From a virus, in the IMG/VR virus record IMGVR_UViG_3300042992_000431, positions 1-41,638 of that record: a stretch of 41,638 nucleotides of DNA; one strand, given 5' to 3'. The position numbers and the translations under genes were made by a program. Under the pieces are notes generated by a model. That model was given only the letters and a program-made list of their open reading frames with translations. It made no database searches and was not told the DNA's origin. Positions 17,496-41,579 of this stretch are shown piece after piece. Within the stretch, counting starts at the first letter, position 1, and every line of letters begins with the position of its first letter.

Positions 17496-17942
17496 ATGAA
17501 CGACTCAGCTATAAAGATTCTAAAAACAGCAAATGCTGTTAGGGATTTATTGTTAGAAAAAAATAAAGCATATGGGGACTCAGCACTTGAGCCTTCCAAT
17601 ATCTTTGCAAAGGGTTCCGCTGTAGAGAACATCTGCTGTCGTATTGACGACAAGCTGATGCGAATCAAAAACAAAGGGATCAACGACTCCACGGAGGATA
17701 CTATTCAGGACCTAATAGGTTATTTAATTTTACTTAAAATTGCAGTTGAAGATGAGCGTACTAGAACAATCAATAACCATATTTCCGAGTATTCTACACA
17801 CGGAGAAACCTTCGTACATAACGATATCCGCCGCACTCCAAAGAATCTCGACTGGTGGGAAACATCTACCTCTAGTTCAGCAAGTCAGAGAAGGCCAAAA
17901 AGAAGCGAAGAAGAAGCTTCCGGTGATCCTATGGGCGGGTGA
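17496..17942 (+). CDS. DUF1599/MazG-like nucleotide-associated protein
   Basis: Residues about 5-85 contain LLLEKNKAYGDSALEPSNIF, ICCRIDDKLMRI and DTIQDLIGYLILLKIAV. This is the pattern of DUF1599, also called nucleotide modification associated domain 1, a MazG-like all-helical fold. Such proteins are thought to act on nucleotides or in base modification in phages. The natural domain seems to end near EDE. The last 60 residues or so are low-complexity (SSSASQRRPKRSEEE) and overlap the start of the primase-helicase by 191 bases, so the stop codon may have been lost. Confidence 0.7.
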   Translation: MNDSAIKILKTANAVRDLLLEKNKAYGDSALEPSNIFAKGSAVENICCRIDDKLMRIKNKGINDSTEDTIQDLIGYLILLKIAVEDERTRTINNHISEYSTHGETFVHNDIRRTPKNLDWWETSTSSSASQRRPKRSEEEASGDPMGG

Positions 17943-20121: not shown

Positions 20122-20197
20122 GTACTCTAGATCATTTCGTCTTGAGCTTGATATGATTCGCTCCGCACTTACGGAGTACGCAGAACAGCAGCGATGA
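19979..20197 (+). CDS. Hypothetical helical protein, 72 aa
   Basis: A 72-residue helical protein (MTLEQLSRVYFIATSRISAG...) with a possible membrane-free helix bundle. Its front half lies inside the resolvase gene in another frame, and its stop overlaps the glycosyltransferase start (ATGA). The coupling to the next gene supports it. Family unknown. Confidence 0.55.
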   Translation: MTLEQLSRVYFIATSRISAGSAELYEDLHDQKGSPLLDPKQVSEITNKYSRSFRLELDMIRSALTEYAEQQR

Positions 20198-22636: not shown

Positions 22637-22945
22637 ATGAACAACAATACAATCGCATCTATTATTTTTTACGAGATAAGAAACGAGTATGGCCTCAGCA
22701 TTTCTCATATACGTAACAAGACTCGTATATCCTATGTGCGTGAGGCACGCCAGGTGTTTACTCAGCTTATGCGAGAGCACTCATCAATGACCACCACGGA
22801 GATTGGTAGGCTAGTAAACAGAGACCACTCTACGGTGGTCGCCACTACAAAGGCGGTAGGTCGTGAACTAGATACAAACAAAGTATATCGAAATCGTTAT
22901 AGTAAGATGAAGTTTAACATAGAATCAAAAATCAACAATGTCTAA
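22637..22945 (+). CDS. DnaA domain IV-like DNA-binding protein
   Basis: The 102-residue protein (from the ATG at 22637) is about the size of DnaA domain IV alone. It has ISYVREARQVFTQLMREHSS followed by MTTTEIGRLVNRDHSTVVAT, which matches the ARQxxMxL...IGxxFGGRDHTTVLHA signature (RDHSTV at 62-67). There is no AAA+ ATPase part. It may recognise DnaA-box-like DNA to control replication or transcription, for example of the RNR genes that flank it. It overlaps the nrdA start by eight bases. Confidence 0.75.
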   Translation: MNNNTIASIIFYEIRNEYGLSISHIRNKTRISYVREARQVFTQLMREHSSMTTTEIGRLVNRDHSTVVATTKAVGRELDTNKVYRNRYSKMKFNIESKINNV

Positions 22946-24856: not shown

Positions 24857-24983
24857 GATAGGACTTGGAGTACAGCTTAGAGGTCTTGAGCTTGCTGCTC
24901 TTGGTCTTGGAATGTACGCCCGGCCTGCTTACTTTAGGCTTTGCTTGGAAGGTTGATGCTGTTTGTGCTTTGGTTTTAGCCAT
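24843..24983 (-). CDS. Basic miniprotein, 46 aa
   Basis: Starts at the ATG at 24983, whose A is the last base of the upstream TAA. The 46-residue product is almost all Lys, Ser, Thr and Arg, with the core RPGVHSKTKSSKLKTSKLYS and end YRGQG. I recall similar VKRPGVHxKTKxSKLKxSKxY proteins in many phages. It may bind nucleic acid or the virion. No proven function. Confidence 0.65.
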   Translation of the reverse strand: MAKTKAQTASTFQAKPKVSRPGVHSKTKSSKLKTSKLYSKSYRGQG

Positions 24984-25396
24984 TATCTGAATCGGTATAA
25001 AAACATCATAACGACAAGTGCTGCCGCTAAGAACAAAAGTAGGTAATCTTTTACCTTGCCCGTTTTGCTTTCCGGCTGAACTAATTGCGGTGGACACTCA
25101 GCTTGGACGCTTACCGCGTAGGGAACTTCCTTTACCAATGTTTTCACTATCATCTTGTCTTGGTACTTCGTGATGACAATTTTGACGGTGTCGTTTTCAA
25201 TCACCGCAGAGTCGCCATTATCTAGAACAGCAACTGTGTCAACTAGATACACTGGTGGGGTGATGATGGTATCCCAGACCGTAATGGTGACTGGCTTCAG
25301 TATTGAAGGGTCCTTCTTTACTGCTTTGTTGAGATGATAGGTGGCGCTGCATCCTGTAAGAAGTGCAGCGACCACTAGGGTTGATAGGTATTTCAT
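24983..25396 (-). CDS. Putative unimolecular spanin (lipobox plus C-terminal TM)
   Basis: The 137-residue protein starts with a lipoprotein signal (MKYLSTLVVAALLTGC, Cys16). It ends with a membrane helix (residues 117-137, DYLLLFLAAALVVMMFLYRF). The periplasmic middle is strand-rich. An outer-membrane lipid anchor and an inner-membrane helix in one chain is the architecture of u-spanins such as T1 gp11, which fuse the two membranes at lysis. The M15 endolysin is about 19 kb away on the other minus arm, an uncommon separation. Other envelope roles are possible. Confidence 0.65.
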   Translation of the reverse strand: MKYLSTLVVAALLTGCSATYHLNKAVKKDPSILKPVTITVWDTIITPPVYLVDTVAVLDNGDSAVIENDTVKIVITKYQDKMIVKTLVKEVPYAVSVQAECPPQLVQPESKTGKVKDYLLLFLAAALVVMMFLYRFR

Positions 25397-28300
25397 TTTT
25401 TCTCTGGTATTTCGTATCCGTACAGCACGTAAGCTTCTTCGTTTGGTTTTAGTGCTCGTTTAACATTTTTGTTTGCATCAGCAATCATCTTGTAGTTTCC
25501 TTTCTTGATTCCAATGTTTGTAATTGACTTGTACATCTTCTTGATTTCGTCAAGCTCTGCAAGCCTGTTGTCCCTAGATGCCCCAGTTAAGTCGCTGTAC
25601 TGCTCCTTCTTTGTACGGAACTGATCCGTAAAGTAGTAGAACTGAACTGGGATGTTGAACTCATAGTCACGGATAACTGCACGAGAAGCAACTCGCCCAA
25701 CAGCATCAAGCGGGCTGTACTTATCGGCCTCGGTCTCAAGACGTTTTTGCTCATCGCGGTACGATGATGCAATAAACGGAGGAATAATCAATGACTTTAG
25801 TGTGTGACCACCATACTTGTAACCCTTCGTTAGTTTGCTGTCGTAGCTGTTGGTTATATCCCTTCCGTAAAAGTCCTTGTTTTCTGCAAGATTAGTTAAG
25901 AACGAGATACCCATATTAGGTTGAAGTAGGTCAACAACATACGCTGGGAAAGATAATGGGTCTGTAGCTAGGTCAAAGAAGCTTCCATATGGATCCTCCA
26001 TAGAGTAGTCATAGGCAGTTGCAATGCCTTCCTTACTAACCTTAGTAGGTATAATGCTGTGTCCCTCCATCCAGTTTGGGCGGTTGTTCTTGATGTCCTC
26101 CTCAAGCTCATCATCATCCCCAAGTGCAAGAGATGCCAAGATGGACGTTATAGCTAAACGAGCTCCCATAATTGCAGCAGACCCAGCAAGACGACGAGAC
26201 CCAGCTTTAATGTACTCAGCCTTTTGTTCTGGAGTCAAAGTCTTATCAGTCATACCCTTCATAAGGTCCTGCTGTCCGTTACGAATGTTTGCGCTGAAAC
26301 TACGAAGGGATTCAAACTCAAAAGACAGGAAGTCTCCCGCTGGAAGTTTAGCGAGTGATGCGTACCACTTTGGCAACCTAGAAAACGTTGGCGTGTTCTG
26401 CTTCACAAACTCAGCCGCCTCAGCGTGGACCTTATTCTTCTGAGCGTCAGTAAGCGAGTCGTATGACTTCCCGTACATCTTCTTTGCAAATGATTGAATC
26501 TCTGAACGGAAGATTACTAGCTTGGTGTAGTCGTCAACGGCAGCATACTTCTGACCCACTACAGAGTCAAAGTTCTTGATTAAGTTTCTCGCCCTGTCAA
26601 CATAACTAATGTAGTCGTTATCGTTCCCGGTTAAAGTGCGAGAGTATATGGCGTTTGTAAACCCTAAAAGGTTAGCGTTTACGTCTTGACCAATGATGCC
26701 ATTGTCACCCATAATCTTGATAAGGGCCTCAGTCTCCGCGTCTGTTTCTCCATTTGCAAATAATTGAGCACGACGCTTAATGTCTCTTACAATGCTAGGG
26801 TTAATCACTCCATTTGCTGCCATAGTATACCAGCCACCAGTAAGGTTTTTACGCCACGTCGGAAGGTTATATATAACCTTAGACTTACGAGCAAGCTGAA
26901 GGGTCGTTAGGTATCCACTCATCCATATGTTATCAGACTCATAGATGTTCTGATTTGTGATTGCCTCATACACATCACGGTGAACGAATCGCCCATTAAG
27001 GGGGGAGAACTTATCCTTTACCTCTTTGTATTCACCAGTTGACTTCTCAGCGTCCGTCACCTCGTTCTTGATGAACTGGGTGCCGCCAAGTGATTCGCTT
27101 ATCGCGTAGAGCATATGGCCCTTGTACTTGATGTTTGATAGAGCAATTGTCGTGTCAATAAATCGAATAATTGGATCACGCTCCTTGCCTAGCAAATTTT
27201 GGATTGTCTCAGGCAATTCTTTGCGGCGTAGGAACTGTTCGCTTGGCAGCTTTATTCCAGATGGACTTACAATTCCAAGCTTCTTAAAGTCGCTTCCGTT
27301 GCGAATCTTTTCGATGTCGGCAATGTAGTCGTCTATTGCTTTTGTTGCCTCCTTTAAAGTCTCGTCGTGAAGTAGCTCGAAGAACTCTCCAGCCTCATCT
27401 TCTTTAAAGCCTTCCTTATCGATGAGGTCATTAATTTTCTTTGACCGTAAAATCTCATACTCATAAGCAATAGCGTCACGACGTGCCGCATTTGACGGCT
27501 TAAAGTTCTTATCCTTCCAAAATCTATAACTGCCACGCATATATTGACCAAAGTTGTCAATAATTGTATTAACAGTTTCCTCTGGCATCGCGTGAAACTC
27601 TGGGCTGTTCACAAAGTCATCGGCAAACGAATCAATGTAGTTACGCATCGCATTTGCCTGTCCAAATATCAGACTCCCATTAGGCTTAGACTCTAGTATT
27701 CTTTGATTCTCCGGGGTAAGTGTTCCATCAAAGATGTTACCCACTAAGTCAATAGTCTGAACATCTGCTTTTTTAAGCAGTTGATTCAGACCTTTTGTGA
27801 ACTTCTTAATCTCACGACCCTCTACAGATAGCTGAGAACTCATACGCTCCTTAAATACCCGAATTTGCTTCTGGGTATCACTCCAAACAAAAGTCTTAGC
27901 TGTATTAACAGCTCTCTGCTTAAATGATAGCTGTTCTTTATCTAGGATTTCTTCACGTACATCACGAGAAGATGACTCTTTTAAATAGTTAGCTTCGTCC
28001 TTAATAAGGTTGTCGTTCAGCTTTCCAAAGTTGAAGATTACAGCCTCATAAAAGTCATCAGTTTGGAATCCATCATAACCAACAGATAGCATAGCTTCAG
28101 AAAAATCTGTGAAACTAAGAATGTAATCGTTATCTAAAAACTTACGCAAGTCATCAATAGAATACTTACCATATTTAGAATCACCAGATATGGTAGAACT
28201 TATTTTTAATGCGTTATCTAGTGGAGTCTTTAATGATTTTGGTATTAATTCAATGCCTTTAAATAGGCCCTGAAGTTTTAAAATCCGAGCTTCAGCCAAT

Positions 28301-31300
28301 GACTTAAGTTCGTTCGCAAAATCATTGTTTGCTTTTGCATCAATGTCAAGGAAGTTATATTTATTTAATGGCGTAAAAATAAATTTGTTCCCATAGTCTA
28401 ACGCCTTACTTGATCTTGATGTAAAGTAGAATCCGTATCCATATAGGGATCGTGCTCCTCCGTATATTCTTTGCGGATCAAATGTATCAAATGAACCTTT
28501 TGTTGCGTGTATAAGTAATCCAGCTTTACTAGCTTCTGAAAGCTCTTGGAACGACTTAGAACTAGACTCCTTAAGTATGTTGTCATATACTTTGTTGGCC
28601 TGACTAGAAGATGACTCAGATAGTTCTGAGTCCATAGCGTTATTACGCTCATCAAGAATTTCTAGGGCTTGGTTGAGAAGCTTAAGCGCACCTTCCCTTC
28701 CATCTTTTTCGTAGCGTTTGGAATCCCTAGCTTCTTGTAAAATTCTTCCGTAGTAAGCGCTTGATTCTCTGTCTGATCCGGGGAAGTTAACTTCTGCTTC
28801 ATAGTATTGGATTGATTTTTCATCGATTAGATTGTTTGACTTGGCAAATGTAACTAAATTTTCTAAATTATTACGCAAGCCCGAAATATTTACATCATCA
28901 TAAGGAATCATTGCGAGATGGAATGACTTGTCAGATGGCACATAAGTAAATCCGCCCCCGAATCCGTAGTCATTTAGGGAGTCAATGATTCGCTTGGCAT
29001 CGGCATCGCTCTTCGCCTTAAAGGTAACCTCCTGTGATTGGCCTCCAGTCTTGTACTCGACAATCATAACTCCATTCTGAAAGTCTTCTTTTTTCACTGG
29101 GGCCATAATGCCAGCAACAGCAGACATAGCAAGGATGTCTTCCTTATTTCCCGCAATAGCAGGTCGCATTGAAACCTCCTGTGTGACAGAGTTTAACTCA
29201 GAGTCGTACCATCCACCAATAGTCTTTTCAATTCCGTATACTTGAACATCAAACTTTTTTGCGATGTTATTAAATGCATTAATGAATCGTTCAAATGATG
29301 GCTTCTTATACTCATCGCGAGCCTCAGATATCTCGTTAACGTACTTTGCACGATATGGAGCAATACCCAAAATAGACTTAACGATGTTGTCGTTGATTTC
29401 GAGATTATTTACGGACGCACCGCCAGTAACAATAGCACGAGCAGCACGAATCTTAATTCGCTTCTTAAGCTCTGGGTCTCCCTTATCCTCGGCCATCTTA
29501 GAGCGATAATCGCCAAAGACATTCCTCACGTCTACGAACTCATTAAGAATCTTTAGGTCCTTAAATCCAGTAATAATCCAAGGGTACGCAGGGTGCACCT
29601 TTGCGCCTTTAATTTTGCGAGAGTCTTTGACATCCATTTTAGCCAAGTCAAACTCAAGTACGGCAACAAGGTCACCATATTGAGCATTTGCAAGTAGTGG
29701 CTCATTAACGTAGTCTAGGATGGCTTCAATCCTAGGCAAACCAAATCGTTTGTTTGCTTCTGCGGAAAACAAAGCCTCATTGAACTCAGCCCGTACTTCA
29801 TATCCAACCTTCTTTGGGCCATCGTTTGGCATAAGTTCATTGAGTTCGGATAGCTTTTTAATCTGAAGTGGTAAACCCTTCTCAGCTAGTGCTGACTGAA
29901 TTGGTTTTTTCTTTAGTTTAGAGTTGATATACTCAACAAGTTCAGCCTCAGTAGCCCGCTTATCCTTAACAGCCTTGTTTACTTCATCAAGCATATATCC
30001 CCAGAACTGAAAGTTTCCACGAATACCCCTGCTATCTTGAGACATAAGGAGCACACGACCATCAAACTTCTTGAGCTTACTTAATATTTTCTTTGCTGTT
30101 TTCTCATCCGTGAATGCCCAACCCCCCTCTCCGAGGAGCGGGTAAAACACACCACCATCAAAGGTGTATGTAACCCCCGTTGGTGACTTTACGGTACCCG
30201 TTACAGCAAGGTCCATAGCGTACGTTATTGCTGGCTTGCCCACATACTCGCTAAGGTCTGCAAATTGTATTTTCTCCTTATCAAATTTGCGATCAACGTA
30301 CGAAGCATCCCTACCTTGTCTAGAGCTAGACTCTGAAACGGGAGGTATAGACGTGGTTACCTCAGACTCTAGTCCGGTGTATGTCTGCTCGTCAATTGAT
30401 GACTCAAACAAGGCACCAGAGAACGAGTTCATAAAGTCAACGAACTCACCACGAGTGGTAATCTTAAGGCTTGGAAATACTTTTCCGATAAAGTTGTTTG
30501 TCCACTGGATCAGCTTGTCCATCGTGGACTTGCTAATCTTGCGACCATTAACAGCAATAATTCCTGCTGTCTGAGCCATAAACTCCTCGGGACTTTCTTT
30601 TGCTGAATACTCACCGCCTTGTACGAATCTTTCAACAGCATCAGCAAGTTGTTGGTCCTCTGCGGTTCCACTGCGAAGCACTCTAAGCAATCCTGATTGG
30701 AAGTCACTAGCAATCTTTTCTCTAGTCGCTTGGCTAGCCTTGGCAAACCTATTTACAAATGCTGCGTGGAACACCTCGTGGAAGGGAACCTCGGAGGTCA
30801 TATCCTCGAGGTTCAGATGTATCTCATTCCTGGATGGGATAAACCTACCCGACTCAACACCAGAGGCAACAGACCCGCTCTTAGACACCTCGTCCATAGC
30901 GTCATTGAATTCCTTTCTGCTGTTGTGTACTATTATCTTCGTAGGAAGACCTAGTCGCCTCGCTAGCCTTTCAGCAGCAGATACAGCTTCAGTTACTTGC
31001 TCGCTACTTAATCCTTTGTTATTCTTTACAGGCTCTTGTTCGACAACTTGCTCGGTCACCTGCTCAGCGACAACAGTCTCAGTGGGGAGTACTACCCTTG
31101 CGGCCTTGCGCTCTGGGCGCTTGGCCGCCGGTACCCGCTCCTTAGTAGTTACATCACGAGTAACCGTCTCGTACTCCTGCATCCAGATAACCTCTGGAAC
31201 ATCTCCAATCTCCTTCTTACGCGCATCAATAGCGATGTCTAGCGCAAGTTCTGGGCGATTGACTACTTGGATTCTAACAGGAGAAATATCTTCTCCCTTT

Positions 31301-33381
31301 GGTGTCCTTGGACGCATCACGACACCAGTAAGGTTTCCGTCAGCGTCAAGTATTGATTCTACGTATTCTAATCCCAAGATGTTCTCGGCAACTTTAGGTT
31401 GCCTAGAAACTTCTTGCTTGGTGGCCTTATCGTATGTTACAACATCAATCGACCCGTCTTCTTGCGTTTCGATTACTGATGTCTGCCCTTCGGTCTCTGT
31501 GCCAACAGCAACCTCAAGGTTGTTTAGCCTTTCGAAGAGGCGGAACTTTCCGCGTCGGACTTCTGGTTCGACAATCGTGCGGCTACCCGCTCTAGGAGCT
31601 CCAACTGGGACTTCTTCGGTAACTTGTTCAGTTGTAGTAATTGTTTTGTTGTCATAGTATTCGATATCATCAAATTTATCTTCTAGTGTCTGTATGTATG
31701 CTGTCTTTACATCGTCTGCAATGTCCAACGCATCAACCTCATCGATAGCGTTAAGTATTTGCTGTTGAGCCGCTTGGGCTTCAGTGTTGTCTACCTCTTG
31801 AGCCTCTGCTATTTTTTGGAAGACTTCTTGCTGCTCAAGTACTTGAAGTACTCGATCTGCTTCAGGCGACGTTCCGCTTGCGACTTGGATAGGTTGGACT
31901 TCGATAGGGGCTTGCCCTTCGACGACAGGACTTGGTATCCCTGCTTCTTCTTGAGTATCATATGCTGAGTATTTAGATTCTAAATCTTTTTGCTGTTGTA
32001 TTAGGCCTCCAACTTTAGCTTTAATGTCTTTTGTGGCTTCTGTATCCTTGATGACTTTGGCCATTGAAGCGTAGCGCTTAATTTCATTGTCAATCTCAAG
32101 AAACCGCTCTAGGTCTTGTGGGTTTTGCGTTCCTACATATTCGTAAAACTTAGCGTCATCCGTTGCATTACGAGTTCGAGTCTTAATAGACTCTGCTAAC
32201 TTCTGAGAATAGTAATCTTGTTCCTCAACAGTAGAAGAAGCATCAAGCTTCTCCTTGTACTTGTTAATCTCTGTTCTAGCCTTTGCGTTCTTCATATCGC
32301 GTCCAACAGAGTTGGCAAGCGCAGTAGCATCAGCTATAGTAGATGGTGTGTTGAAGACAGCACCGCCAACAGCACCCATAGCGGCGCCCTCAAATCCCTG
32401 ACGGAATGCATCTCCAAGGTTTACATCTCCAGTACGAGCATATTGATCAACAGCAGATTGTCCGAATCCAGTAGTAAACTCGGCAAGAGCCTCTTCTGTC
32501 ACAGCGACGCCATTGGACTTTAATGCTCCTTTAGCAATCTCTTTTGCTGTTTGTTCAAAGGCTTGTTTTGTGATTTGTTGAGCGGCAAGTTTCTTTACGG
32601 CTCCAGACAAAATCTTTCCGCCGATCCCTTCCCCAAGCACCTCAAGTCCACCCATTGCACCAGTATATCCTGCTCGCATAAGCGGACTCATATCCTCATA
32701 GAACTTCTCTCCTTTCGCATCAAGGTGAGCTGATTGGGCGCCATAACCGCCCATCAGCGCAAGAGATACTGGTGCTCCAAGTCCGCCAGTTCCAAGAGTA
32801 ATTGCTGCCGATGTAATAGCAAGAGGCGCAGTTCCTAAAAGAAACTCTTCTGCCTGAAGTGCGGCATCACCAAATTTACCCTGTGCAATGCTTTCCGTAA
32901 ATGTTTGCTCAAACTTTGGACCTTCATCTCGAATCTTATCAATGGCAGATTTTGCCTGAACGTCAATTGCTTCACGAGTAAGTGGCGTCGATAGTGGGGA
33001 TGCGTATGATGCTGCCTTAAGTAAAGCACTTTTGCCAATCTCGTAAGTTTGTCCGAGGGCAGACTTGGCTACATTATACCAATTAGGCGTATCTACTTCA
33101 GATACATCTTCCTGATTAGATCCTTCAAACTTGGGAATTTCACCAAATGCAGCGGGGACTTTATTTGATGTATCCGAAGCAGAAGGTTCTGCCAAAGATT
33201 GTAAATTGGATGCCTCGGAAAGTTCTTTTTTTTTTACGTCAAAATCTACCTGTTCAGAATACACTGGATACTTATCAAGCATCTTGCTAACCAATACAGA
33301 GTCATCAACGTCCTTATACTGTGGATATTTTAACTTTACCTTGGCCGAAAATTCAGCTACTGACAACTTAGGTTCTGGCAT
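25393..33381 (-). CDS. Giant polyvalent protein with zincin and ART-like domains
   Basis: This 2662-residue protein, the largest in the window, has a Gly/Ala-rich amphipathic region at about 150-345. Coiled or Gln-rich linkers follow at 350-560. A zinc peptidase-like site follows, with His868-Glu869-x-x-His872 (PFHEVFHAAF) and possible third ligand in SPEEF (932-933). An ADP-ribosyltransferase-like domain follows with His1625 (IHATKGSFDTF), Tyr1652 (GYGFYFTS) and Glu1779 (DFYEAVIFNF), an H-Y-E set. The long C-terminal part is helical. Such large multi-enzyme proteins are usually packaged and ejected with the DNA into the host. The stop overlaps the spanin start (ATGA). Exact domains need profile searches. 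Confidence 0.75.
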   Translation of the reverse strand: MPEPKLSVAEFSAKVKLKYPQYKDVDDSVLVSKMLDKYPVYSEQVDFDVKKKELSEASNLQSLAEPSASDTSNKVPAAFGEIPKFEGSNQEDVSEVDTPNWYNVAKSALGQTYEIGKSALLKAASYASPLSTPLTREAIDVQAKSAIDKIRDEGPKFEQTFTESIAQGKFGDAALQAEEFLLGTAPLAITSAAITLGTGGLGAPVSLALMGGYGAQSAHLDAKGEKFYEDMSPLMRAGYTGAMGGLEVLGEGIGGKILSGAVKKLAAQQITKQAFEQTAKEIAKGALKSNGVAVTEEALAEFTTGFGQSAVDQYARTGDVNLGDAFRQGFEGAAMGAVGGAVFNTPSTIADATALANSVGRDMKNAKARTEINKYKEKLDASSTVEEQDYYSQKLAESIKTRTRNATDDAKFYEYVGTQNPQDLERFLEIDNEIKRYASMAKVIKDTEATKDIKAKVGGLIQQQKDLESKYSAYDTQEEAGIPSPVVEGQAPIEVQPIQVASGTSPEADRVLQVLEQQEVFQKIAEAQEVDNTEAQAAQQQILNAIDEVDALDIADDVKTAYIQTLEDKFDDIEYYDNKTITTTEQVTEEVPVGAPRAGSRTIVEPEVRRGKFRLFERLNNLEVAVGTETEGQTSVIETQEDGSIDVVTYDKATKQEVSRQPKVAENILGLEYVESILDADGNLTGVVMRPRTPKGEDISPVRIQVVNRPELALDIAIDARKKEIGDVPEVIWMQEYETVTRDVTTKERVPAAKRPERKAARVVLPTETVVAEQVTEQVVEQEPVKNNKGLSSEQVTEAVSAAERLARRLGLPTKIIVHNSRKEFNDAMDEVSKSGSVASGVESGRFIPSRNEIHLNLEDMTSEVPFHEVFHAAFVNRFAKASQATREKIASDFQSGLLRVLRSGTAEDQQLADAVERFVQGGEYSAKESPEEFMAQTAGIIAVNGRKISKSTMDKLIQWTNNFIGKVFPSLKITTRGEFVDFMNSFSGALFESSIDEQTYTGLESEVTTSIPPVSESSSRQGRDASYVDRKFDKEKIQFADLSEYVGKPAITYAMDLAVTGTVKSPTGVTYTFDGGVFYPLLGEGGWAFTDEKTAKKILSKLKKFDGRVLLMSQDSRGIRGNFQFWGYMLDEVNKAVKDKRATEAELVEYINSKLKKKPIQSALAEKGLPLQIKKLSELNELMPNDGPKKVGYEVRAEFNEALFSAEANKRFGLPRIEAILDYVNEPLLANAQYGDLVAVLEFDLAKMDVKDSRKIKGAKVHPAYPWIITGFKDLKILNEFVDVRNVFGDYRSKMAEDKGDPELKKRIKIRAARAIVTGGASVNNLEINDNIVKSILGIAPYRAKYVNEISEARDEYKKPSFERFINAFNNIAKKFDVQVYGIEKTIGGWYDSELNSVTQEVSMRPAIAGNKEDILAMSAVAGIMAPVKKEDFQNGVMIVEYKTGGQSQEVTFKAKSDADAKRIIDSLNDYGFGGGFTYVPSDKSFHLAMIPYDDVNISGLRNNLENLVTFAKSNNLIDEKSIQYYEAEVNFPGSDRESSAYYGRILQEARDSKRYEKDGREGALKLLNQALEILDERNNAMDSELSESSSSQANKVYDNILKESSSKSFQELSEASKAGLLIHATKGSFDTFDPQRIYGGARSLYGYGFYFTSRSSKALDYGNKFIFTPLNKYNFLDIDAKANNDFANELKSLAEARILKLQGLFKGIELIPKSLKTPLDNALKISSTISGDSKYGKYSIDDLRKFLDNDYILSFTDFSEAMLSVGYDGFQTDDFYEAVIFNFGKLNDNLIKDEANYLKESSSRDVREEILDKEQLSFKQRAVNTAKTFVWSDTQKQIRVFKERMSSQLSVEGREIKKFTKGLNQLLKKADVQTIDLVGNIFDGTLTPENQRILESKPNGSLIFGQANAMRNYIDSFADDFVNSPEFHAMPEETVNTIIDNFGQYMRGSYRFWKDKNFKPSNAARRDAIAYEYEILRSKKINDLIDKEGFKEDEAGEFFELLHDETLKEATKAIDDYIADIEKIRNGSDFKKLGIVSPSGIKLPSEQFLRRKELPETIQNLLGKERDPIIRFIDTTIALSNIKYKGHMLYAISESLGGTQFIKNEVTDAEKSTGEYKEVKDKFSPLNGRFVHRDVYEAITNQNIYESDNIWMSGYLTTLQLARKSKVIYNLPTWRKNLTGGWYTMAANGVINPSIVRDIKRRAQLFANGETDAETEALIKIMGDNGIIGQDVNANLLGFTNAIYSRTLTGNDNDYISYVDRARNLIKNFDSVVGQKYAAVDDYTKLVIFRSEIQSFAKKMYGKSYDSLTDAQKNKVHAEAAEFVKQNTPTFSRLPKWYASLAKLPAGDFLSFEFESLRSFSANIRNGQQDLMKGMTDKTLTPEQKAEYIKAGSRRLAGSAAIMGARLAITSILASLALGDDDELEEDIKNNRPNWMEGHSIIPTKVSKEGIATAYDYSMEDPYGSFFDLATDPLSFPAYVVDLLQPNMGISFLTNLAENKDFYGRDITNSYDSKLTKGYKYGGHTLKSLIIPPFIASSYRDEQKRLETEADKYSPLDAVGRVASRAVIRDYEFNIPVQFYYFTDQFRTKKEQYSDLTGASRDNRLAELDEIKKMYKSITNIGIKKGNYKMIADANKNVKRALKPNEEAYVLYGYEIPEKK

Positions 33382-33392: not shown

Positions 33393-34685
33393 TTAAAGAT
33401 TGAGGCCAAGTGGATCACTTCCTGCTTGCGAAGATACGGCGTTTTGAGAAGTGGTTGCCGTGCGCTGCGATGAGGGAAGAATCTTAAAGTACTCGTCTGA
33501 CAAGCCATCTGTTGCCTTTCTTAGTAGTGATAGGTCGCTGTCCTTTGCCTTCCTACCCTTTTCTTTAGGGACGTTAATCTCAGCAAAATCACCTGTTTCA
33601 GCGTTTGTAACCATTTGCTTTTCATTGACTATCTCAATTATATATGGAGATCCGTTGATTTTACCAAAGCGAACAATCTTACCTCCTGCGGAGGCAACTG
33701 GTGCAAAGTCAATTGGAACCATAAATCCACTACCGATTGTTTTGTCTCCAACCTTTTGAGTGTATGGAACAGCATCAATACCAAAATACTTATTCTCCCT
33801 TTGTTTGTCGTTAAGCTTAGCGTACTCAAGCGCAATCTTTTGCTGCTGTAGGCGAAGTTCCGCAGGATTGACTCCCATACGAGGAATAACAGCCATAAAC
33901 GCATCAACAGCGTCATTGGTGAACTTACCAGCTAGGCGATCACCCTGTGGCTTGAACTGCTCAGTATCGAGGATATCTAAGTCAGCTCGGCTTGTAATCT
34001 CTCCATTGCGACCTATAGTTCCCTCACGAACGCCTTCATAAACGATAGCATTCTTTACCTGTTTTGGGTCAATATAGCGAGCGCTCATAAAGTTATTCAT
34101 ATACTCTCGAGCCTTAGCTTCGTCAATCCTTCCATCGGGAAGGATATAGTCATTAATATTCTTTCTGAAGTTGTTAGCAGCCTCATCTGCAATTTGAGTT
34201 GGGCTTTGCATATCATAGTTATACCTTGGAAGCAAGGTAAATGGATTAGCTGCAAGGGACATAATCTGATTGGCATCACGTTTAGTGGTGCGCTCGGCAT
34301 CAAATAATTCCGAAGCATTTCTCCCACCCAAGTCAAACTGATCTGGCTTGGTATTGTATGCTGACCATTGCTGGCGGTAGTTGTCAGCTAAGAACTGTGC
34401 TGTTCCTGCAACCTCGTTATATCCAGCATTAGCCTCACGAACCTTACGTCGTAGGTCTATATTATCTGGGTCCCTAGCAAGCTCTTTAAGTGAGTTTTCT
34501 ACCGCGCCATAGGCTGTCTGAACAGCCTCTCTGTCTCCATCAAGATATGTTCCCGACTTCTTGGTGAACTGAGAGGACCAATCGTCAAACTGAAGCTGCT
34601 TTTCGCGCTCACGCTCATTGAGCTTGTACTGAAGCTCCGCAAAGTTTGGCAGCTGGATTACGCCACTCGGAATAAGTTTAGCCAT
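33393..34685 (-). CDS. Phage internal or tail structural protein, 430 aa
   Basis: A 430-residue protein (MAKLIPSGVIQLPNFAELQY...) with a charged helical first half (KLNEREREKQLQFDDW; LKELARDPDNIDLRRKVREA) and a mixed second half. Its place directly before the giant polyvalent protein and after tail genes suggests an internal or ejected virion protein. No enzymatic motif was seen. The start overlaps the upstream gene stop by one base. Confidence 0.55.
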   Translation of the reverse strand: MAKLIPSGVIQLPNFAELQYKLNEREREKQLQFDDWSSQFTKKSGTYLDGDREAVQTAYGAVENSLKELARDPDNIDLRRKVREANAGYNEVAGTAQFLADNYRQQWSAYNTKPDQFDLGGRNASELFDAERTTKRDANQIMSLAANPFTLLPRYNYDMQSPTQIADEAANNFRKNINDYILPDGRIDEAKAREYMNNFMSARYIDPKQVKNAIVYEGVREGTIGRNGEITSRADLDILDTEQFKPQGDRLAGKFTNDAVDAFMAVIPRMGVNPAELRLQQQKIALEYAKLNDKQRENKYFGIDAVPYTQKVGDKTIGSGFMVPIDFAPVASAGGKIVRFGKINGSPYIIEIVNEKQMVTNAETGDFAEINVPKEKGRKAKDSDLSLLRKATDGLSDEYFKILPSSQRTATTSQNAVSSQAGSDPLGLNL

Positions 34686-35653
34686 TATTTTTGCTTATTG
34701 AATTTCTTTAACAGCTGACGGAAGTAAGCACTTTCTTTGCTAAGCTTTTGCTGTTGGGCTGGGTTGAGGATAACCTCTCCACCTGTCATCTCACCAATCT
34801 TCTGACCTTTCTTTACGATGTCAATTGGGTTGGTCTTATGGTCAAACTTACCGCCTGTAACCATACCGCCCTGCTCAAGCCTTCGGGGTTTTTTATTCCC
34901 CATAGAAGGCATATATTCGTCCGCTGTTTCAAAAATGCCTCTATCAAATAGACTTTGTTGCTCATCTAATTGATCTTGTAAATCAGTAATGTTTAAATCA
35001 ATAAGAGCACGATCACCCACTGTTCCCCTTAAAGAGGCAAGGGTTTCATTTCTAGCTATTGTTTCCGCGCTAAGTGGAGCCTCAGCAACAGGAGCAATCT
35101 TAGTAGGTTTTTTAGACGCTAATTGAGCGCCATATACACCTGCAGATCCAATCTGACCTACACCACCCGCGATGTTCTGGAGGCCGCCCTCAATGGCGGC
35201 CTGAGCAGCACCACGCTCCATCATCTCACGATTTATGTTACGTCCAATCTCACGCTCAGCGCCCTGCGCTCCAAAGCTAAGGGCCTCCATAGTCTGAGCC
35301 TGACGCTGACCTAGGATATCTAATGCACCAGCATCGGACGCACGAATCATTTTGGGAAGCGCTCCGACAACAGCACGACCACCAGCCCCTTGAGCGGCAG
35401 CTATTCCTGTAGCTATCGAGCGATTAAGTTCCTCAAGACGTCTTTGCTCTAGCTCAGCATTGCGAGCCTGCTTTAGCATCTCTGCGTATTCAGAAGGTCG
35501 AGCTGTTGAAGCTTCCTTGATCCTGTTTGCAGCCTGCTGTCCTTGAATCATTTGGTATGCACCAAGCCCAGCTTGTCCCGCACCTAATGCTCCAGCTAGA
35601 ACAAGTCCTCCCGCTATATATTTTTTTGGTTCTTTACTCTTCTTTGATCGCAT
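34685..35653 (-). CDS. Phage structural protein, helical, with GG-type C-terminal motif
   Basis: The 322-residue protein has a basic start, a possible membrane-active or Gly/Ala-rich N-terminus (KKYIAGGLVLAGALGAGQAG), a long Ala/Gln-rich helix and a C-terminal part with QGGMVTGGKFDHKTNPIDI and MTGGEVILNPAQQQKL. The TGGEVILNP motif recurs in tail and internal proteins of phages. The N-terminal hydrophobic stretch could insert in membranes on ejection. A TACCTTTG box lies five bases before the ATG. Confidence 0.6.
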   Translation of the reverse strand: MRSKKSKEPKKYIAGGLVLAGALGAGQAGLGAYQMIQGQQAANRIKEASTARPSEYAEMLKQARNAELEQRRLEELNRSIATGIAAAQGAGGRAVVGALPKMIRASDAGALDILGQRQAQTMEALSFGAQGAEREIGRNINREMMERGAAQAAIEGGLQNIAGGVGQIGSAGVYGAQLASKKPTKIAPVAEAPLSAETIARNETLASLRGTVGDRALIDLNITDLQDQLDEQQSLFDRGIFETADEYMPSMGNKKPRRLEQGGMVTGGKFDHKTNPIDIVKKGQKIGEMTGGEVILNPAQQQKLSKESAYFRQLLKKFNKQK

Positions 35654-35669: not shown

Positions 35670-38600
35670 TTATTGTCCCTGTTGGTTGTGTAGATTACTT
35701 TGGGCGAACACTGCATTGACGGCATACAATTCAATTTCAGATGTATCGGTGTTTGTTAGGTTGATGCGTGCGTAGTAGTCTCGCAGTTGGTCTCCCTCGA
35801 CACCAGCGTTGGCAAGGACCACTATTGTGTTTCCGTCACTTACACCAGCTATAGCGCCACTTGCAGTAATCTGCTTGTTACCGCTGATGGCAGTAACAGT
35901 TACTCCAAGAGTCACAAGGGTAGCACCGCTGACCTTGTAGAGTGTGCCTCCGAAAGGGAATGGCACATCTCCCACAGGAGTGGTGAACGTAATGGTTGAC
36001 CCAGAAACTCCACTTGTGGCTACGTTTCCGAGAACAAAAACCTCAGAGCTTCCGCTTAGCGAGGTGATGGTTGTGGTCCCAACGTTTGCGCTAGTGTCTC
36101 TTGGAACGTAGGCAAAGAACTCACGCTCCCTCTCGCTGAAGTCGGTAGTAAGGATTGACGTAGACTGGTCTGTGTTTGTGATTACAGTAGCCCAAGCATC
36201 CGTACCCTCAAGGCTTAACGACTCGTAGGACTTAACCATAGACGGGTTGTTATTGCTTATCACCTCCACGATAGTGCTTCCTGCAACGCCGTAGTATGTA
36301 GATCTGTTAGATGTATCGTCGTGGACGTACATCGTTCCAGCCTTGAATGTGTACAGCGTGTCGTCTAGGCTAGCAATCCTCTCTGGCGAGTAGGAGTACC
36401 TAGTGTTCCACACCTTGTCTTCGGTATCGTAGGCTACGGTGAAACCTGTGTCTGTAGTGCCAACATTAGAAATTGTTCCATTGTAGTTTCCGCAGGTGTT
36501 TATAAAGGTAAACGTTCCAGCGGAAAGGTCTATAGATATACCGACAAAGAAATCATACGTAGAGTTGGTCGCAATACCGTAGATGGTGCTGTTGGTGCCC
36601 TGAAACTCTTCTCCAACAATGATTGCCTGCCCAGCCGTAAGCCTGTCTAAATAAACAACAGCATTTACGCTGTTGTCAAACGTATCGCATATGTCTTGAA
36701 ACTCACGAACCTCTGTGTTGAACTGAGGAAGTTTGTCGTCGTTGTACTCTATTTCGGCAAATACAACAGAGCCTGCACAATTTGTTTGTAGTGTAAAGCT
36801 AAACGAGCCAAGAAGGACCTCTATTGCAGCATCAAAGCATATTGTGCCCTCAAAGGTTCCACCGTCATCTATGCAGCGATGTTCAAACGCTGCCGTTATG
36901 TCAACACCATCTGCTGTTATGGCAATTGTTGATGTACATATACTATCGCTAGCGATAATATATTCGCCTGCCTCGTCGTCAACGCCTCCAACTACTCTCT
37001 TTACTGAGGCAAACTGGACTATATCCCTAAAGTTGCCCTTGAAGAATGAGTCCATCTTGGTCTCACTGATTGCGGTCAGCCCATCTTGGGAGATGCGCAT
37101 CACCTTTCCATTGCGGATATCGGCAAAGTAAACACGACCACCCTCTACGGCAACAGACTCTGGGTTGTTTCCAACTCCAAAGTCGCCTACGTAGTAACTC
37201 GGTGTTCCAACAACGTTTGTGGACACTGTAACGCCTTGCTGTCCGCTTACGTACTCAATTAAATTACGTCCCACTGGTAACAGGCCACACTTCTTGTCCT
37301 GCAAGAATACTATGCTGTCGTCTCTGTTGACCATATAACGGATTGAACCGTGGATGTAGTTGAGGTCGTAGAAAGGCGCTAGGGATGGGTTAAATGAGGA
37401 CAGCCCAAGCCTTGTTACGTCAACAATAAAGGGATCAGAATAGGTTACGGATCCAGTCCTGTAGACTGTCTTTGCGTCTGGAAGAACAGCAAACGGACGA
37501 CCAATAGATGTGTTCTTTGATGTAAAAAAGTCGCTTACCTCATCGGACTCTACATACTCAACAAAGTAGTTGTATGCATCGGGGTCATTGCCATATCGAA
37601 GCTGTCGTAGACGGAAGTAGGTATCGCCCTGAGTTAATTCAACAGCTACTAAACTGCTGTTGGTTATGTTCAGTGTATATGTCTGCGCTGCAGTAAATGC
37701 TCCTGTGGAGAAGGTGGTGTCAACAAAGTAGTTGTAGATACCGCTTACCTCTGGGTAAACGTTTTGCACTTCAAAGGTATTTCCGCTGCCATCGCTAAGG
37801 GTGTCCCCAGCATAGAGCTCAATGTTTGTCCTAAACTGAAGTGGCCTTACGTTAGTGCAGATAGCAGAAACTGAGGATATAACAGTTCGATCACCAGTCA
37901 ACACTCCGTTGACCACGTCATAAGACTCTCCTACCTCATAGTAAACTTCTTCGTCCTGTCCTTTACGCTTACGGTATATTTCCACCAAACACTTGCTTGA
38001 CCAAAAATCTGTTCCGAGTACTACTGAGTTCTTATCGAATCCATCAATGTTCTTGTCTTTAAGGACAAGAAACTTTCCGGTTGTTTGATATATGCTGTTG
38101 TCGCTAGCCCTATTCAGTACTGGGTTAGTATCAAGATTATCAGTAAGTTCTTGGTAGTCAACTACTTCAAAGTCAATATCGATTGGATACACCTTTGTAT
38201 CAACATTAGCAACTGAGCTGTATATCGCTACTGCTCCAGTAACAAGATTTCCTAATGATCCAGATGATGGTGGTGTACTGCTTGAGGTTCCAGTAATTAC
38301 TCCTGCACCTCCAACTAGATTTACACTAGTTACTTGGACAAATACAAAGGTTCCTAGATTAAGCGTGAAAAGAACATCTCCTACATTTATTGTACCCGTG
38401 ACAGATGATATAACGAAACTATATTGATCGTCATCTTTTTGATAGGAAACTACCCTAAGGCGGTCCCCCTTGAGGAAGTTATACTCAAGGTTTGCTCCCT
38501 TCGCCTCCTTGTATGAGTCATCCTTGCCCTCTAATGATCGGAATGAAACAAAGATGTAATCGTTGTTTGCTACGTTTGATGGAGAGTTTATTGCCTCCAC

Positions 38601-40829
38601 ATTGGTTGCGGCAAATGCATCAATAACGCTGTACTGAACAAAACTATCGATTGATCCTTTTTTAGTGTACACTGGTGCCCAGCTTGCAGCAAATGCGGGA
38701 GCTGTACCAGCGAGTCGCATTACGATAGAATTCTTTCCTCTGTAGTTTCTGTTGCCGTACCAGTCAAGGTAAACCTTTCCAGCCTTCTGAACACCTGTTG
38801 CCCTACCGCGATTGTCAAACAAAACGTAGCCAAGCTCGTGGACAGCGCCAGACTTGAACTGCTTGTAACCTTCTATTTTGTCGGACAGAAAATTTGACGA
38901 TTCTAAAATCTCCGATGTCTCTACAAGATTTCCTTCATCACTAGTGGGCTGTTGAAGACCAAGGCTAAAAGTAGCATCACTTGAAGTGCCGCTCCCGTCT
39001 GGTATTACGTATTTGTCTTCATCGGCATCATCTGATCTACTTACACCAGAATATGATAGGTAGGATAAGTTTGAAAAACTTAACGTCCCAGATGAGTCTA
39101 TATTAAATTGTTTTTGCAGGTTTGGGTTAAATGGCCCACCACCAGCAACGCTGCCTAAGGTAAGGTTTATTGTTGGAAATCCAGAAATAATAAATTTTAA
39201 ATTACTACCGCTTAATCCAGCGCTTGAAACATCCATTGTACAGTTACCTTGGAAGAATCCCCATCTAAATATTATTGGGTTTACTAGTGGTGTTTTCCCA
39301 ATAACTATTAATTGCGATCCAGCAAGTGGTCCAAACCTAGAAGCGTATGCCCTTTCCGTAGGGTTGGAACCTATCGTAATAGTATAAATCTTTGCAACAA
39401 CAGATTCAATAGCTGCGGTAAAATCAGATATGTCTGACCCGGCGGGAAGAACTATACTTTCCGTTATTGATATTGGCGCTAGTTGAGCCTTTATTCTGTC
39501 AGCAATTACACCTCCAGCATTGTATTGGACAAGGTCTTCGTCTAATTCAACCCAATCAATAAATGCTCCAGGAGCAGACAATATGATATCATTAATTGCT
39601 AGGGTAAGGTCAATGTGCAGTATCGAATCAACCTGAGTTGTTAGCGATGAGATATTACTTAAATCGAAAGAAAAACCAGTTACACTATTTGGAGTTGAAC
39701 CTCCTGTACTCTTAGTAAAAGATACTGGTATGTTGTAGACTGTTGCCTCCTTATCATAGTTAGGATAAAGACTTACCTTGAGATTCGCATTTGGATATCC
39801 TTCGGTATAGTTGCCTAAAAACAATCGTGAGCCAGAAATGGTTTGAGACTGAGCCGTAAAAGGAACAGCATCATAGGTCTTGTTTGCCTCGTCTTGAGAG
39901 ATGAACTGATACAGCTCATCATTTTTAAAATCAGTATATAGTGTAGCTGGACTTGCAAGGGCGGGATTTGAAATCTCGCCCACAATAAACCAAGGTCCAG
40001 TGTTTCCTCTACGTCCCAGCACTCTGATGGTCTTTACATCAGCTGTTGAGGTCTCTACGTATACTCGGATAGCGTTAAATTGATTACGTTGATCGTCATC
40101 AATAAAGCCGTCTAGGTATTGGTTATTGGCAACAGCTAAATCTGTATACTTAGATAACGCTGAGTACTCACCGTCTAGGTAAACATACTGATAGGCAAAT
40201 TGAAAGTTATCCTCGTAGATGTTGTTATCGTCAACAGTTGTGTCGGTAAAGAACTCGTAGGTTGGAGGGTCCAGAGGTGGCTTCTTAGCCAACGTAATAA
40301 ACTCTAGCTTCTGCTCGTCTGTTCCGTTGGTGATGACCTCTGAATAGCCCCCTATAATCGCTCTGGTTACGTTAATCTTCTTTGGTGGAGTTATACCATC
40401 AGTGAAGTAAAGAAGAACCTCGTTGTAGAGATTATTGATTACATCTCCCTTTACGAAGCTGTCAGACTGGAAGGCCAAAACGCTGTCGCGGTAAACTAGC
40501 TCTACATTATTTTGCGAAGTGGTAAACCTATAGATTGAATGATCACCATTGCTGTTGTAGACAAAGTATATGATTACTCCATTCTTTAGGTCGCTGACAG
40601 AACCTACAACTTTATTTGTTCCTCCAGGAAGCGCGTGAGGCAATCCCTGCCAGTTGTTACCAGAGCGAAATACAACAGCTGAGTTACCAAAAGCGTTCTT
40701 GACAACACCGCCATCGCCATTCTCTTCAGACGAGATACGCACATTAAGTGCGTCTGTCATCTCTATGCTTTTGATTAGGCGCGCATCATCGTCCTTGTTA
40801 AGGTATCGAGGTATGAGTTTTTCAATCAT
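35670..40829 (-). CDS. Large tail-associated structural protein, 1719 aa
   Basis: The protein begins MIEKLIPRYLNKDDDARLIK and continues SIEMTDALNVRISSEENGDG. I recognise this opening from podovirus-type tail or stabilisation proteins, where a beta-propeller-like part follows. The remaining 1,600 residues are beta-rich, Asn/Thr/Ser/Gly-rich and low in Lys, with many VT, TIT and DGV repeats. There is no enzymatic motif. It probably forms part of the tail hub, knob or spike. Six bases separate it from the adaptor-like gene upstream. Confidence 0.65.
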   Translation of the reverse strand: MIEKLIPRYLNKDDDARLIKSIEMTDALNVRISSEENGDGGVVKNAFGNSAVVFRSGNNWQGLPHALPGGTNKVVGSVSDLKNGVIIYFVYNSNGDHSIYRFTTSQNNVELVYRDSVLAFQSDSFVKGDVINNLYNEVLLYFTDGITPPKKINVTRAIIGGYSEVITNGTDEQKLEFITLAKKPPLDPPTYEFFTDTTVDDNNIYEDNFQFAYQYVYLDGEYSALSKYTDLAVANNQYLDGFIDDDQRNQFNAIRVYVETSTADVKTIRVLGRRGNTGPWFIVGEISNPALASPATLYTDFKNDELYQFISQDEANKTYDAVPFTAQSQTISGSRLFLGNYTEGYPNANLKVSLYPNYDKEATVYNIPVSFTKSTGGSTPNSVTGFSFDLSNISSLTTQVDSILHIDLTLAINDIILSAPGAFIDWVELDEDLVQYNAGGVIADRIKAQLAPISITESIVLPAGSDISDFTAAIESVVAKIYTITIGSNPTERAYASRFGPLAGSQLIVIGKTPLVNPIIFRWGFFQGNCTMDVSSAGLSGSNLKFIISGFPTINLTLGSVAGGGPFNPNLQKQFNIDSSGTLSFSNLSYLSYSGVSRSDDADEDKYVIPDGSGTSSDATFSLGLQQPTSDEGNLVETSEILESSNFLSDKIEGYKQFKSGAVHELGYVLFDNRGRATGVQKAGKVYLDWYGNRNYRGKNSIVMRLAGTAPAFAASWAPVYTKKGSIDSFVQYSVIDAFAATNVEAINSPSNVANNDYIFVSFRSLEGKDDSYKEAKGANLEYNFLKGDRLRVVSYQKDDDQYSFVISSVTGTINVGDVLFTLNLGTFVFVQVTSVNLVGGAGVITGTSSSTPPSSGSLGNLVTGAVAIYSSVANVDTKVYPIDIDFEVVDYQELTDNLDTNPVLNRASDNSIYQTTGKFLVLKDKNIDGFDKNSVVLGTDFWSSKCLVEIYRKRKGQDEEVYYEVGESYDVVNGVLTGDRTVISSVSAICTNVRPLQFRTNIELYAGDTLSDGSGNTFEVQNVYPEVSGIYNYFVDTTFSTGAFTAAQTYTLNITNSSLVAVELTQGDTYFRLRQLRYGNDPDAYNYFVEYVESDEVSDFFTSKNTSIGRPFAVLPDAKTVYRTGSVTYSDPFIVDVTRLGLSSFNPSLAPFYDLNYIHGSIRYMVNRDDSIVFLQDKKCGLLPVGRNLIEYVSGQQGVTVSTNVVGTPSYYVGDFGVGNNPESVAVEGGRVYFADIRNGKVMRISQDGLTAISETKMDSFFKGNFRDIVQFASVKRVVGGVDDEAGEYIIASDSICTSTIAITADGVDITAAFEHRCIDDGGTFEGTICFDAAIEVLLGSFSFTLQTNCAGSVVFAEIEYNDDKLPQFNTEVREFQDICDTFDNSVNAVVYLDRLTAGQAIIVGEEFQGTNSTIYGIATNSTYDFFVGISIDLSAGTFTFINTCGNYNGTISNVGTTDTGFTVAYDTEDKVWNTRYSYSPERIASLDDTLYTFKAGTMYVHDDTSNRSTYYGVAGSTIVEVISNNNPSMVKSYESLSLEGTDAWATVITNTDQSTSILTTDFSEREREFFAYVPRDTSANVGTTTITSLSGSSEVFVLGNVATSGVSGSTITFTTPVGDVPFPFGGTLYKVSGATLVTLGVTVTAISGNKQITASGAIAGVSDGNTIVVLANAGVEGDQLRDYYARINLTNTDTSEIELYAVNAVFAQSNLHNQQGQ

Positions 40830-40835: not shown

Positions 40836-41579
40836 CTAGTACTTAGGAGATTGCTTGAAATTCTTGCGAATCGTCTTCAGTGCTTCGTCCTTAGAGAATG
40901 ACTTTAGTCGTGAGTTTGCTAGACGGCGCTCGGTGTAGTACTCCTGACGCGCACGAGCCTTCTCTCCTAATGGGACATTACTCTTGCGCTCGATGAGATG
41001 GTTGTAGATGTACGCCCTCAGGGCCTGCTCTGCGTAGATGTGGATGGTGGGGCTCGCTGCACGAGCCTCGTCTGCAATGTACTCTAGGTAGACGGTGTCT
41101 ACGCTGGTCCCAGTGGTGAGCTCTATCCTGTTCTGCTCTGTGTTTATTCTGTACTCTCCGCTGTAGTGGCCACCACCATAGCCGTATAAGCGGCCATTGG
41201 TTGTGGCGTACACATAGTTGCGATAAATAAAGTCGTCAAAGCCAAGAAGGTAATCAGGAATCTGATAAGGCTGCTGGTTGGCGAGTATGTTTTTGTTTTT
41301 GTTCTCTCCGAATATATATACAAGTCCATCTGCTCCTACTATTCCAATTTTTACTAAGTCAACATAATCGTTTGGTAACGTCACGCTATTAGTGTTTACG
41401 TTAACATTAAGCTCAGTGGCCTTTAAACGCTTCAGGATGTCGAATCCCATCTCCCTGATACCTCTTAGCGCTAAGTTGCGAATAAGGGTGTCTGAGGCGG
41501 TATTTGCATAGTCATCACTCTCCATCGATATGACGAAGTCCGTAATGACCTGCTCAAGTGATACGGTATCCTGTGCCAT
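40836..41579 (-). CDS. Tail tube or head-tail adaptor-like protein, 247 aa
   Basis: The 247-residue protein has helical ends and a strand-rich middle. DTLIRNLALRGIREMGFDIL and VTLPNDYVDLVKIGIVGADG resemble the T7 gp11-type tail tubular/adaptor family, in which a helical bundle meets a beta domain with an LPxDYxxLxxV segment. It lies directly before the large tail protein and shares the TAATG junction with the gene upstream. Assembly into the neck or tail ring is inferred. Confidence 0.6.
   Translation of the reverse strand: MAQDTVSLEQVITDFVISMESDDYANTASDTLIRNLALRGIREMGFDILKRLKATELNVNVNTNSVTLPNDYVDLVKIGIVGADGLVYIFGENKNKNILANQQPYQIPDYLLGFDDFIYRNYVYATTNGRLYGYGGGHYSGEYRINTEQNRIELTTGTSVDTVYLEYIADEARAASPTIHIYAEQALRAYIYNHLIERKSNVPLGEKARARQEYYTERRLANSRLKSFSKDEALKTIRKNFKQSPKY

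What the first reader, a model, noticed from the sequence alone, without database searches (positions are those of the whole stretch)
25393..33381. 2662-residue injected-type polyvalent protein with toxin-like domains
The protein combines an HExxH zincin, an H-Y-E ADP-ribosyltransferase-like domain and long helical or Gly-rich regions. Iyer, Burroughs and Aravind described such polyvalent proteins as packaged arsenals delivered with DNA. It is probably the strongest candidate here for a host-takeover or anti-defence system.
Basis: partly seen in the sequence, partly recalled or inferred. Interest (0 to 1): 0.75.

Follow-up and report, generated by a model that had tools for sequence, protein, structure and literature searches.

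The report
Swappable phage-injected effector carrier protein
A phage from an environmental sample encodes one huge, completely cysteine-free protein, probably the last and largest protein shot into the bacterium through the tail, built from exchangeable enzyme modules (a metalloprotease and an ADP-ribosyltransferase) that related phages swap at fixed linkers.

Summary
The ORF is real: 2662 aa, minus strand. It carries an HExxH zincin (868-872; second Glu 932/933; invariant in 8 relatives) and an ART-PolyVal-type ADP-ribosyltransferase (H1625, Y1652, E1779; H and Y invariant, E not). It follows a crassvirus-like muzzle gene and two short genes, the order of crAss001 gp43-44-45-46-47. A homologous C-domain protein in Cellulophaga phage phi18:3 is a mass-spectrometry-verified virion protein. 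'Polyvalent protein' is supported.

Further results. (1) It has no cysteine, nor do its relatives: 2 Cys in 100,589 aa against 0.84% in neighbouring ORFs. The two genes upstream are also nearly Cys-free, as are ejected proteins of T7, P22, N4 and crAss001. This marks the giant as the probable third ejection protein. (2) It is a mosaic: relatives match at over 90% in some modules and not at all in others, with DNA breakpoints at residues 1594-1597 and 1801. (3) All four 'SSS' runs are [ED]SSS[R/K/S] linkers at module joints.

Host target and anti-defence role are untested; structure models were poor. New member of a known kind, with a useful compositional signature.

The parts
25393..33381 (-). 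the giant polyvalent protein gene, 2662 aa, 0 cysteines
33217..33381 (-). residues 1-55, YPxY head, also in L052 (63%)
31837..32961 (-). residues 141-515, Gly/Ala-rich N region with hydrophobic segments (180-210); probable membrane/ejection domain; aligns at 25-30% in distant relatives
31891..31962 (-). residues 474-497, conserved linker YDTQEEAGIPSPVVEGQAPIEVQP; lies in a DNA-conserved island (residues 464-516, 84-86%) with divergent flanks versus L003/L004
31012..31836 (-). residues 516-790, unassigned cassette
30355..31002 (-). residues 794-1009, zincin metallopeptidase, HExxH at 30766-30780, EEF at 932-934
30319..30336 (-). linker SESSSR (1016-1021)
29287..30318 (-). residues 1022-1365, unassigned conserved MID domain (GGxxYP, HxxYP), shared with L003/L004/L006/L027/L031
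28621..29286 (-). residues 1366-1587, unassigned X2 domain; part of it has a weak homologue at another position (about 590-690) in L003/L004
28603..28620 (-). linker SESSSS (1588-1593); recombination breakpoint versus L003 (1594) and L005/L006 (1597)
28555..28572 (-). linker KESSSK (1604-1609)
27982..28560 (-). residues 1608-1800, ART-PolyVal-type ADP-ribosyltransferase cassette; H1625, Y1652, E1779
27964..27981 (-). linker KESSSR (1801-1806); breakpoint versus L004 at 1801
25396..27975 (-). residues 1803-2662, C-terminal anchor domain; homologous to virion protein phi18:3 gp123; 132 viral-contig stretches encode relatives
33393..34685 (-). 430-aa protein, 0 Cys, position of crAss001 cargo gp46; probable second ejection protein
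34685..35653 (-). 322-aa protein, 0 Cys, position of crAss001 cargo gp45; probable first ejection protein
35670..40829 (-). muzzle-like tail protein (crAss_MUZ_C E=1.9e-9; phrog_14478 virion structural), 10 Cys: non-ejected control
40836..41579 (-). phrog_13977 virion structural protein at the ring/adaptor position

Best explanation
The gene encodes the third and largest ejection protein of a short-tailed phage. It is packaged in the virion, threaded (probably at least partly unfolded) through the portal and muzzle with or just before the DNA, and refolds in the host. Its N region (hydrophobic, Gly/Ala-rich) and C-terminal anchor domain serve delivery or packaging. The middle carries exchangeable enzyme cassettes: here a zincin, unassigned domains and an ADP-ribosyltransferase that probably modifies host proteins at the start of infection. 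Shown by sequence: ORF, conserved catalytic motifs, purifying selection, mosaic exchange with breakpoints at linkers, operon position, absence of Cys. Inferred: packaging and ejection of this particular protein, ART activity, host targets, and any self-cleavage at the SSS linkers by the zincin.
For: Operon order ring-muzzle-322-430-giant equals crAss001 gp43-gp44-gp45-gp46-gp47, whose last three are MS-detected cargo. The C-domain homologue gp123 of phi18:3 is annotated as a virion protein from MS/MS. 0 Cys in 2662 aa, while this phage's muzzle has 10 in 1719. C-domain giants from 43 distinct loci hold 2 Cys in 100,589 aa against 0.837% in neighbours, all other residues within 0.47-1.18x. The two genes upstream of those giants: 24 Cys in 23,979 aa, 63 of 73 with none; other neighbours 1043 in 87,887. 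Proteins known to be ejected: P22 gp7/gp20/gp16 0/1309, T7 gp15+gp16 0/2065, N4 vRNAP 0/3500, crAss001 cargo 7/7478. The ART domain family has 0 Cys inside giants but 3 in 193 aa as a stand-alone protein. ART and zincin evidence. Cassette exchange.
Against: No proteomics for this phage. P1 (a myovirus) DarB has 9 Cys in 2255 aa and DarA 1 in 639, so Cys avoidance is not universal for injected proteins. Some smaller virion proteins not known to be ejected are also Cys-free (e.g. a 641-aa fibre and a 474-aa virion protein of this phage group). The ART match of this cassette is below Pfam's cut-off and its third residue varies; AlphaFold pLDDT was 55 and Foldseek found no significant match.
Confidence: 0.75

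Rival explanations
1. It is a static internal scaffold, tape-measure or head protein that stays in the particle; the enzyme domains act in assembly (zincin) or are decayed.
For: Homologue named only 'virion structural protein', phrog_22602 'head and packaging'. The zincin could process virion proteins.
Against: Near-total Cys absence matches ejected, not static, large virion proteins (muzzle 10, crAss001 muzzle 10, N4 sheath gp65 11, P22 tailspike 8). ART under purifying selection (dN/dS 0.18). Third place after two Cys-free genes, like T7 gp14-15-16 and N4 gp52-51-50.
Confidence: 0.12
2. The zincin is a maturation protease that cuts the polyprotein at the [ED]SSS[RK] linkers, so separate effectors are packaged or released in the host (an addition to the best explanation rather than its opposite).
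For: All four SSS runs of the protein lie at module joints. SSS[RK]: 12 observed versus 1.1 expected in 9 relatives, 0 of 2000 shuffles, against 1 in 142,364 aa of distant giants. Codons differ between copies, so the peptide is kept rather than the DNA. Linkers co-occur with zincin type A (W, L003-L006, L027, L028, L031) and are absent with zincin type B (L010, L014, L017, L022), although C-domain similarity groups these differently. P1 DarA is processed and N4 vRNAP is not (PMC5512222).
Against: Few independent lineages; linkers may be mere flexible spacers or recombination joints: two of them share 14 of 15 bases and breakpoints fall on them. No cleavage data.
Confidence: 0.25
3. The ART-like domain is not an active ADP-ribosyltransferase but a degenerate or different H-Y domain.
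For: Third residue not conserved; the D of the H-Y-D motif described by Iyer et al. is not evident; models inconclusive.
Against: H and Y invariant in all 11 aligned relatives, E present in both close copies; profile hits to tankyrases and PARP14 cover the H-to-Y stretch, though only at E 0.08-0.6; dN/dS 0.18.
Confidence: 0.2

Closest known systems
Phage polyvalent proteins (Iyer et al. 2017, PMC5512222), incl. LPD38/DarB-like giants
   Same: Giant multidomain, zincin + ART, late virion operon; sister loci L005/L006 carry a true LPD38 C-terminus (L005: E 6.9e-34) at the same locus
   Different: This protein has no Pfam match above cut-off; its C-terminus is of the phi18:3 gp123 type; SSS[RK] linkers were not seen in the sections read and absence of Cys is not mentioned in that paper
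N4 virion RNA polymerase gp50
   Same: Giant, ejected, 0 Cys in 3500 aa, next to Cys-free gp51 and gp52; absence of Cys already linked to tail/periplasm passage (PMC3715699, PMC2784036)
   Different: No RNA polymerase domain recognised here; ART and zincin instead; sequence homology to gp50 was not tested
Phi-crAss001 cargo proteins gp45, gp46, gp47
   Same: Same gene order after ring and muzzle; near Cys-free (7 in 7478 incl. gp49/gp50)
   Different: gp47 is annotated as an RNA polymerase subunit; no homology to this protein shown
Cellulophaga phage phi18:3 gp123 (Baltivirus, Pachyviridae)
   Same: C-domain homology (24% over 573 residues, E 2e-22), 0 Cys, behind a gene matching the muzzle; MS/MS virion protein
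   Different: No ART or HExxH seen; different N half
T7 gp14-gp15-gp16 and P22 gp7-gp20-gp16 ejection proteins
   Same: Small, medium, large Cys-poor proteins in a row; third largest and ejected
   Different: No sequence homology claimed; gp16s are smaller

Membership tests
Polyvalent proteins (phage type) | several domains of unrelated activity in one polypeptide | tested here: met
   zincin and ART-PolyVal-type domain plus unassigned modules
Polyvalent proteins (phage type) | encoded among late virion genes | tested here: met
Polyvalent proteins (phage type) | shares named polyvalent domains (LPDs, ART-PolyVal, MPTase) | tested here: inconclusive
   own match only ART-PolyVal below cut-off; positional homologues carry LPD38 and relatives carry LPD1/3/5
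Polyvalent proteins (phage type) | packaged in the virion and injected | not testable with these tools
   indirect only: homologue MS/MS, Cys absence
ART-PolyVal / Tox-ART-HYD2 (H-Y-D) clade | H in strand 1 and Y in strand 2 | tested here: met
   H1625, Y1652 invariant in 11 rows
ART-PolyVal / Tox-ART-HYD2 (H-Y-D) clade | D in strand 5 | tested here: inconclusive
   E1779 at the start of the last strand, N after it; relatives vary; model too weak
Zincin metallopeptidase | HExxH plus a Glu in a following helix | tested here: met
   HExFHAAF and EEF invariant in 8 relatives; the fold itself was not predicted
Podovirus ejection proteins | row of three genes, third largest, nearly Cys-free (my working signature, not a published definition) | tested here: met
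Podovirus ejection proteins | leaves the particle on infection | not testable with these tools
   needs infection experiments
N4-like virion RNA polymerase | RNA polymerase domain | tested here: not met
   no Pfam or PHROG RNAP match in the protein, though 516-790, MID and X2 are unassigned

The most novel reading that the evidence does not exclude
Absence of cysteine is a general law of proteins ejected by short-tailed phages, and it marks polyvalent giants as the third subunit of the ejection machine; the enzyme cassettes are cargo on a delivery protein and are exchanged, and perhaps cut free, at conserved [ED]SSS[RK] linkers. Ejected proteins could then be recognised from sequence alone.
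Probability: 0.5. Interest if true: 0.75.

Novelty: new member of a known kind. Interest (0 to 1): 0.6.

Why it matters
It ties two literatures together: polyvalent proteins (predicted effectors) and podovirus ejection proteins (delivery machines). Since cassettes with no mutual homology are all Cys-free inside giants, while an ART of the same family standing alone has Cys, composition gives a cheap test for which phage proteins enter the host. In the papers read here this is stated only for N4-type vRNAPs; it can be checked in any phage with virion proteomics. The natural cassette swaps between otherwise near-identical proteins give ready-made comparisons for what each effector does.

Tried and rejected
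AlphaFold of MID+X2 (1005-1600): pLDDT 40, not searched further. AlphaFold of the ART: pLDDT 55, pTM 0.58; Foldseek against PDB gave no significant hit (two ART structures at ranks 3 and 8 with E above 1), so it is not used as support. PDB profile search of the C-domain: nothing; of MID+X2: only weak matches, mostly coatomer, taken as noise. HK97-type prohead protease as cutter of the linkers: S78 not found in six related records. Mixed alignments A6 and A7 misaligned partial rows and were dropped. GNAT guess for the extra L027 cassette: no Pfam match. The MID alignment was too divergent for a collection scan and MID has no match in the phage collection. Relation between the C-domain and LPD38: only a 104-column profile match, probability 75%, not claimed as homology. 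Periplasm-only explanation for Cys loss: weakened, not excluded, by a Cys-free 1679-aa giant in a Bacillus phage.
Full report
OBSERVATION. The window is a virus record. The gene runs on the minus strand, 33381 to 25393, 2662 aa, with no competing plus-strand frame. Pfam and PHROGs scarcely recognise it. The zincin HEVFH lies at 868-872; eight relatives keep HExFHAAF and a later EEF. The ART-like cassette has H1625, Y1652 and E1779. ART-PolyVal matches it at E 0.0016 or 4.6e-5 in a one-record search; homologous cassettes in other giants pass the curated cut-off. H and Y are invariant in 11 rows, E is not.

SURROUNDINGS. Upstream on the same strand lie a virion protein at the ring/adaptor position, a 1719-aa muzzle-type protein (crAss_MUZ_C E 1.9e-9) and two unknown proteins of 322 and 430 aa. 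This is the crAss001 order gp43 ring, gp44 muzzle, gp45 and gp46 cargo, gp47; gp45, gp46, gp47, gp49 and gp50 were found in virions by mass spectrometry (PMC10172136). Genes on the other strand include ERF, exonuclease, primase-helicase and ribonucleotide reductase. A 59.7-kb sister record, identical over the compared genes, adds portal, terminase and fibres.

RELATIVES AND MOSAICISM. Collection scans gave positional homologues at the same locus. Against L003 the protein is 93% identical from 1594 to the end but about 28% in the first 500 residues; against L004 it is 92% identical only from 1800; against L005 and L006 it matches only over residues 1-1619, and the C-terminus of those two is instead a true LPD38 (L005: E 6.9e-34), related to DarB-like and other giants. 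L014 and L017 are 94-96% identical except for one cassette, an ART in L014. DNA breakpoints fall at residues 1594, 1597 and 1801. ART is present in 3 of 11 related records. Modules with measurable dS are under purifying selection, dN/dS 0.04-0.39; between this phage and L003 the ART has dS 0.05 against 0.38 for the adjoining C-domain, so the two parts have different recent histories.

LINKERS. All four SSS runs of the protein sit at module joints: SESSSR 1016, SESSSS 1588, KESSSK 1604, KESSSR 1801. Twelve SSS[RK] occur in nine relatives against 1.1 expected (0 of 2000 shuffles), and one in 142,364 aa of distant giants. Codons differ between copies, though the two copies flanking the ART share 14 of 15 bases. 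The motif occurs in proteins with zincin type A and not in those with type B. Whether these are cut sites, spacers or recombination joints is open.

C-DOMAIN. Residues 1803-2662 define a large family: 132 viral-contig stretches and ten loci in bacterial genomes, all Pseudomonadota by their record titles. Cellulophaga phi18:3 gp123, a member, is annotated as a virion protein from MS/MS. Other parts of members include LPD1, LPD3, LPD5, ART-PolyVal and ddrB-ParB.

CYSTEINE. The protein has none, nor have its close homologues. In 43 distinct distant C-domain giants there are 2 Cys in 100,589 aa; neighbouring ORFs have 0.837%; no other amino acid departs beyond 0.47-1.18 fold. ART relatives inside giants have 0, a stand-alone ART 3 in 193; zincin relatives 1 in 14,233; giants in bacterial genomes 1 in 21,060. 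LPD38-type giants of Vibrio, Burkholderia (4515 aa) and Bacillus phages have 0. Because unrelated cassettes all lack Cys, common descent alone does not explain it. Known ejected proteins behave alike: T7 gp15 and gp16, P22 gp7/gp20/gp16, N4 gp50, crAss001 cargo, whereas muzzles, sheath and tailspike do not. P1 DarA/DarB do not follow. For N4-type vRNAP the absence of Cys and its possible meaning are published (PMC3715699, PMC2784036, PMC4837373); the polyvalent paper and a review of ejection proteins do not mention it. Only open-licence papers were searchable, so earlier statements of the general rule may exist.

THE TRIPLET. The two genes just before the giant have 24 Cys in 23,979 aa, 63 of 73 with none; other neighbours have 1043 in 87,887. 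Sizes of roughly 150-240 and 300-520 aa before a giant recall T7 gp14-gp15-gp16, P22 gp7-gp20-gp16 and N4 gp52-gp51-gp50. I infer that the giant is the third ejection protein.

MECHANISM AND LIMITS. Most likely the protein is packaged, ejected through the muzzle and refolded in the host, where the ART modifies host proteins; the zincin acts on the protein itself or on a host target. Shown: sequence, conservation, exchange, position, composition. Inferred: packaging of this protein, ejection, activities, targets. The anti-defence claim is neither supported nor excluded. Structural models did not help.

Noticed in passing
window 24983-25396 (-): 137-aa lipobox protein with weak Rz-like spanin match directly after the giant; conserved in all close relatives (77-98%)
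   Followed up: partly
window 188-766 (-): GroES-like co-chaperonin (phrog_13932, E 3.1e-22); might serve folding of giant proteins
   Followed up: no
window 21636-22625 and 22938-24716 (+): NrdB and NrdA ribonucleotide reductase; NrdA is 99% identical to L003/L004 although the nearby giant is only about 28% identical in its first 500 residues
   Followed up: partly
window 20194-21156 (+): phage glycosyltransferase (phrog_7162)
   Followed up: no
window 17740-19578 (+): primase-helicase with a BT4734-like N-terminal domain, a hint (not tested) of a Bacteroidota host
   Followed up: no
L027 residues about 1124-1357 versus L028: an extra cassette after the zincin, present in L027 and absent in the 90% identical L028, just before RPSSSK
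   Followed up: partly
L133 1952-2581 (-): HNH endonuclease near the portal gene in the sister record
   Followed up: no
43 loci L033-L096: His (0.47x) and Trp (0.70x) are also depleted in the giants relative to neighbours, though far less than Cys
   Followed up: no
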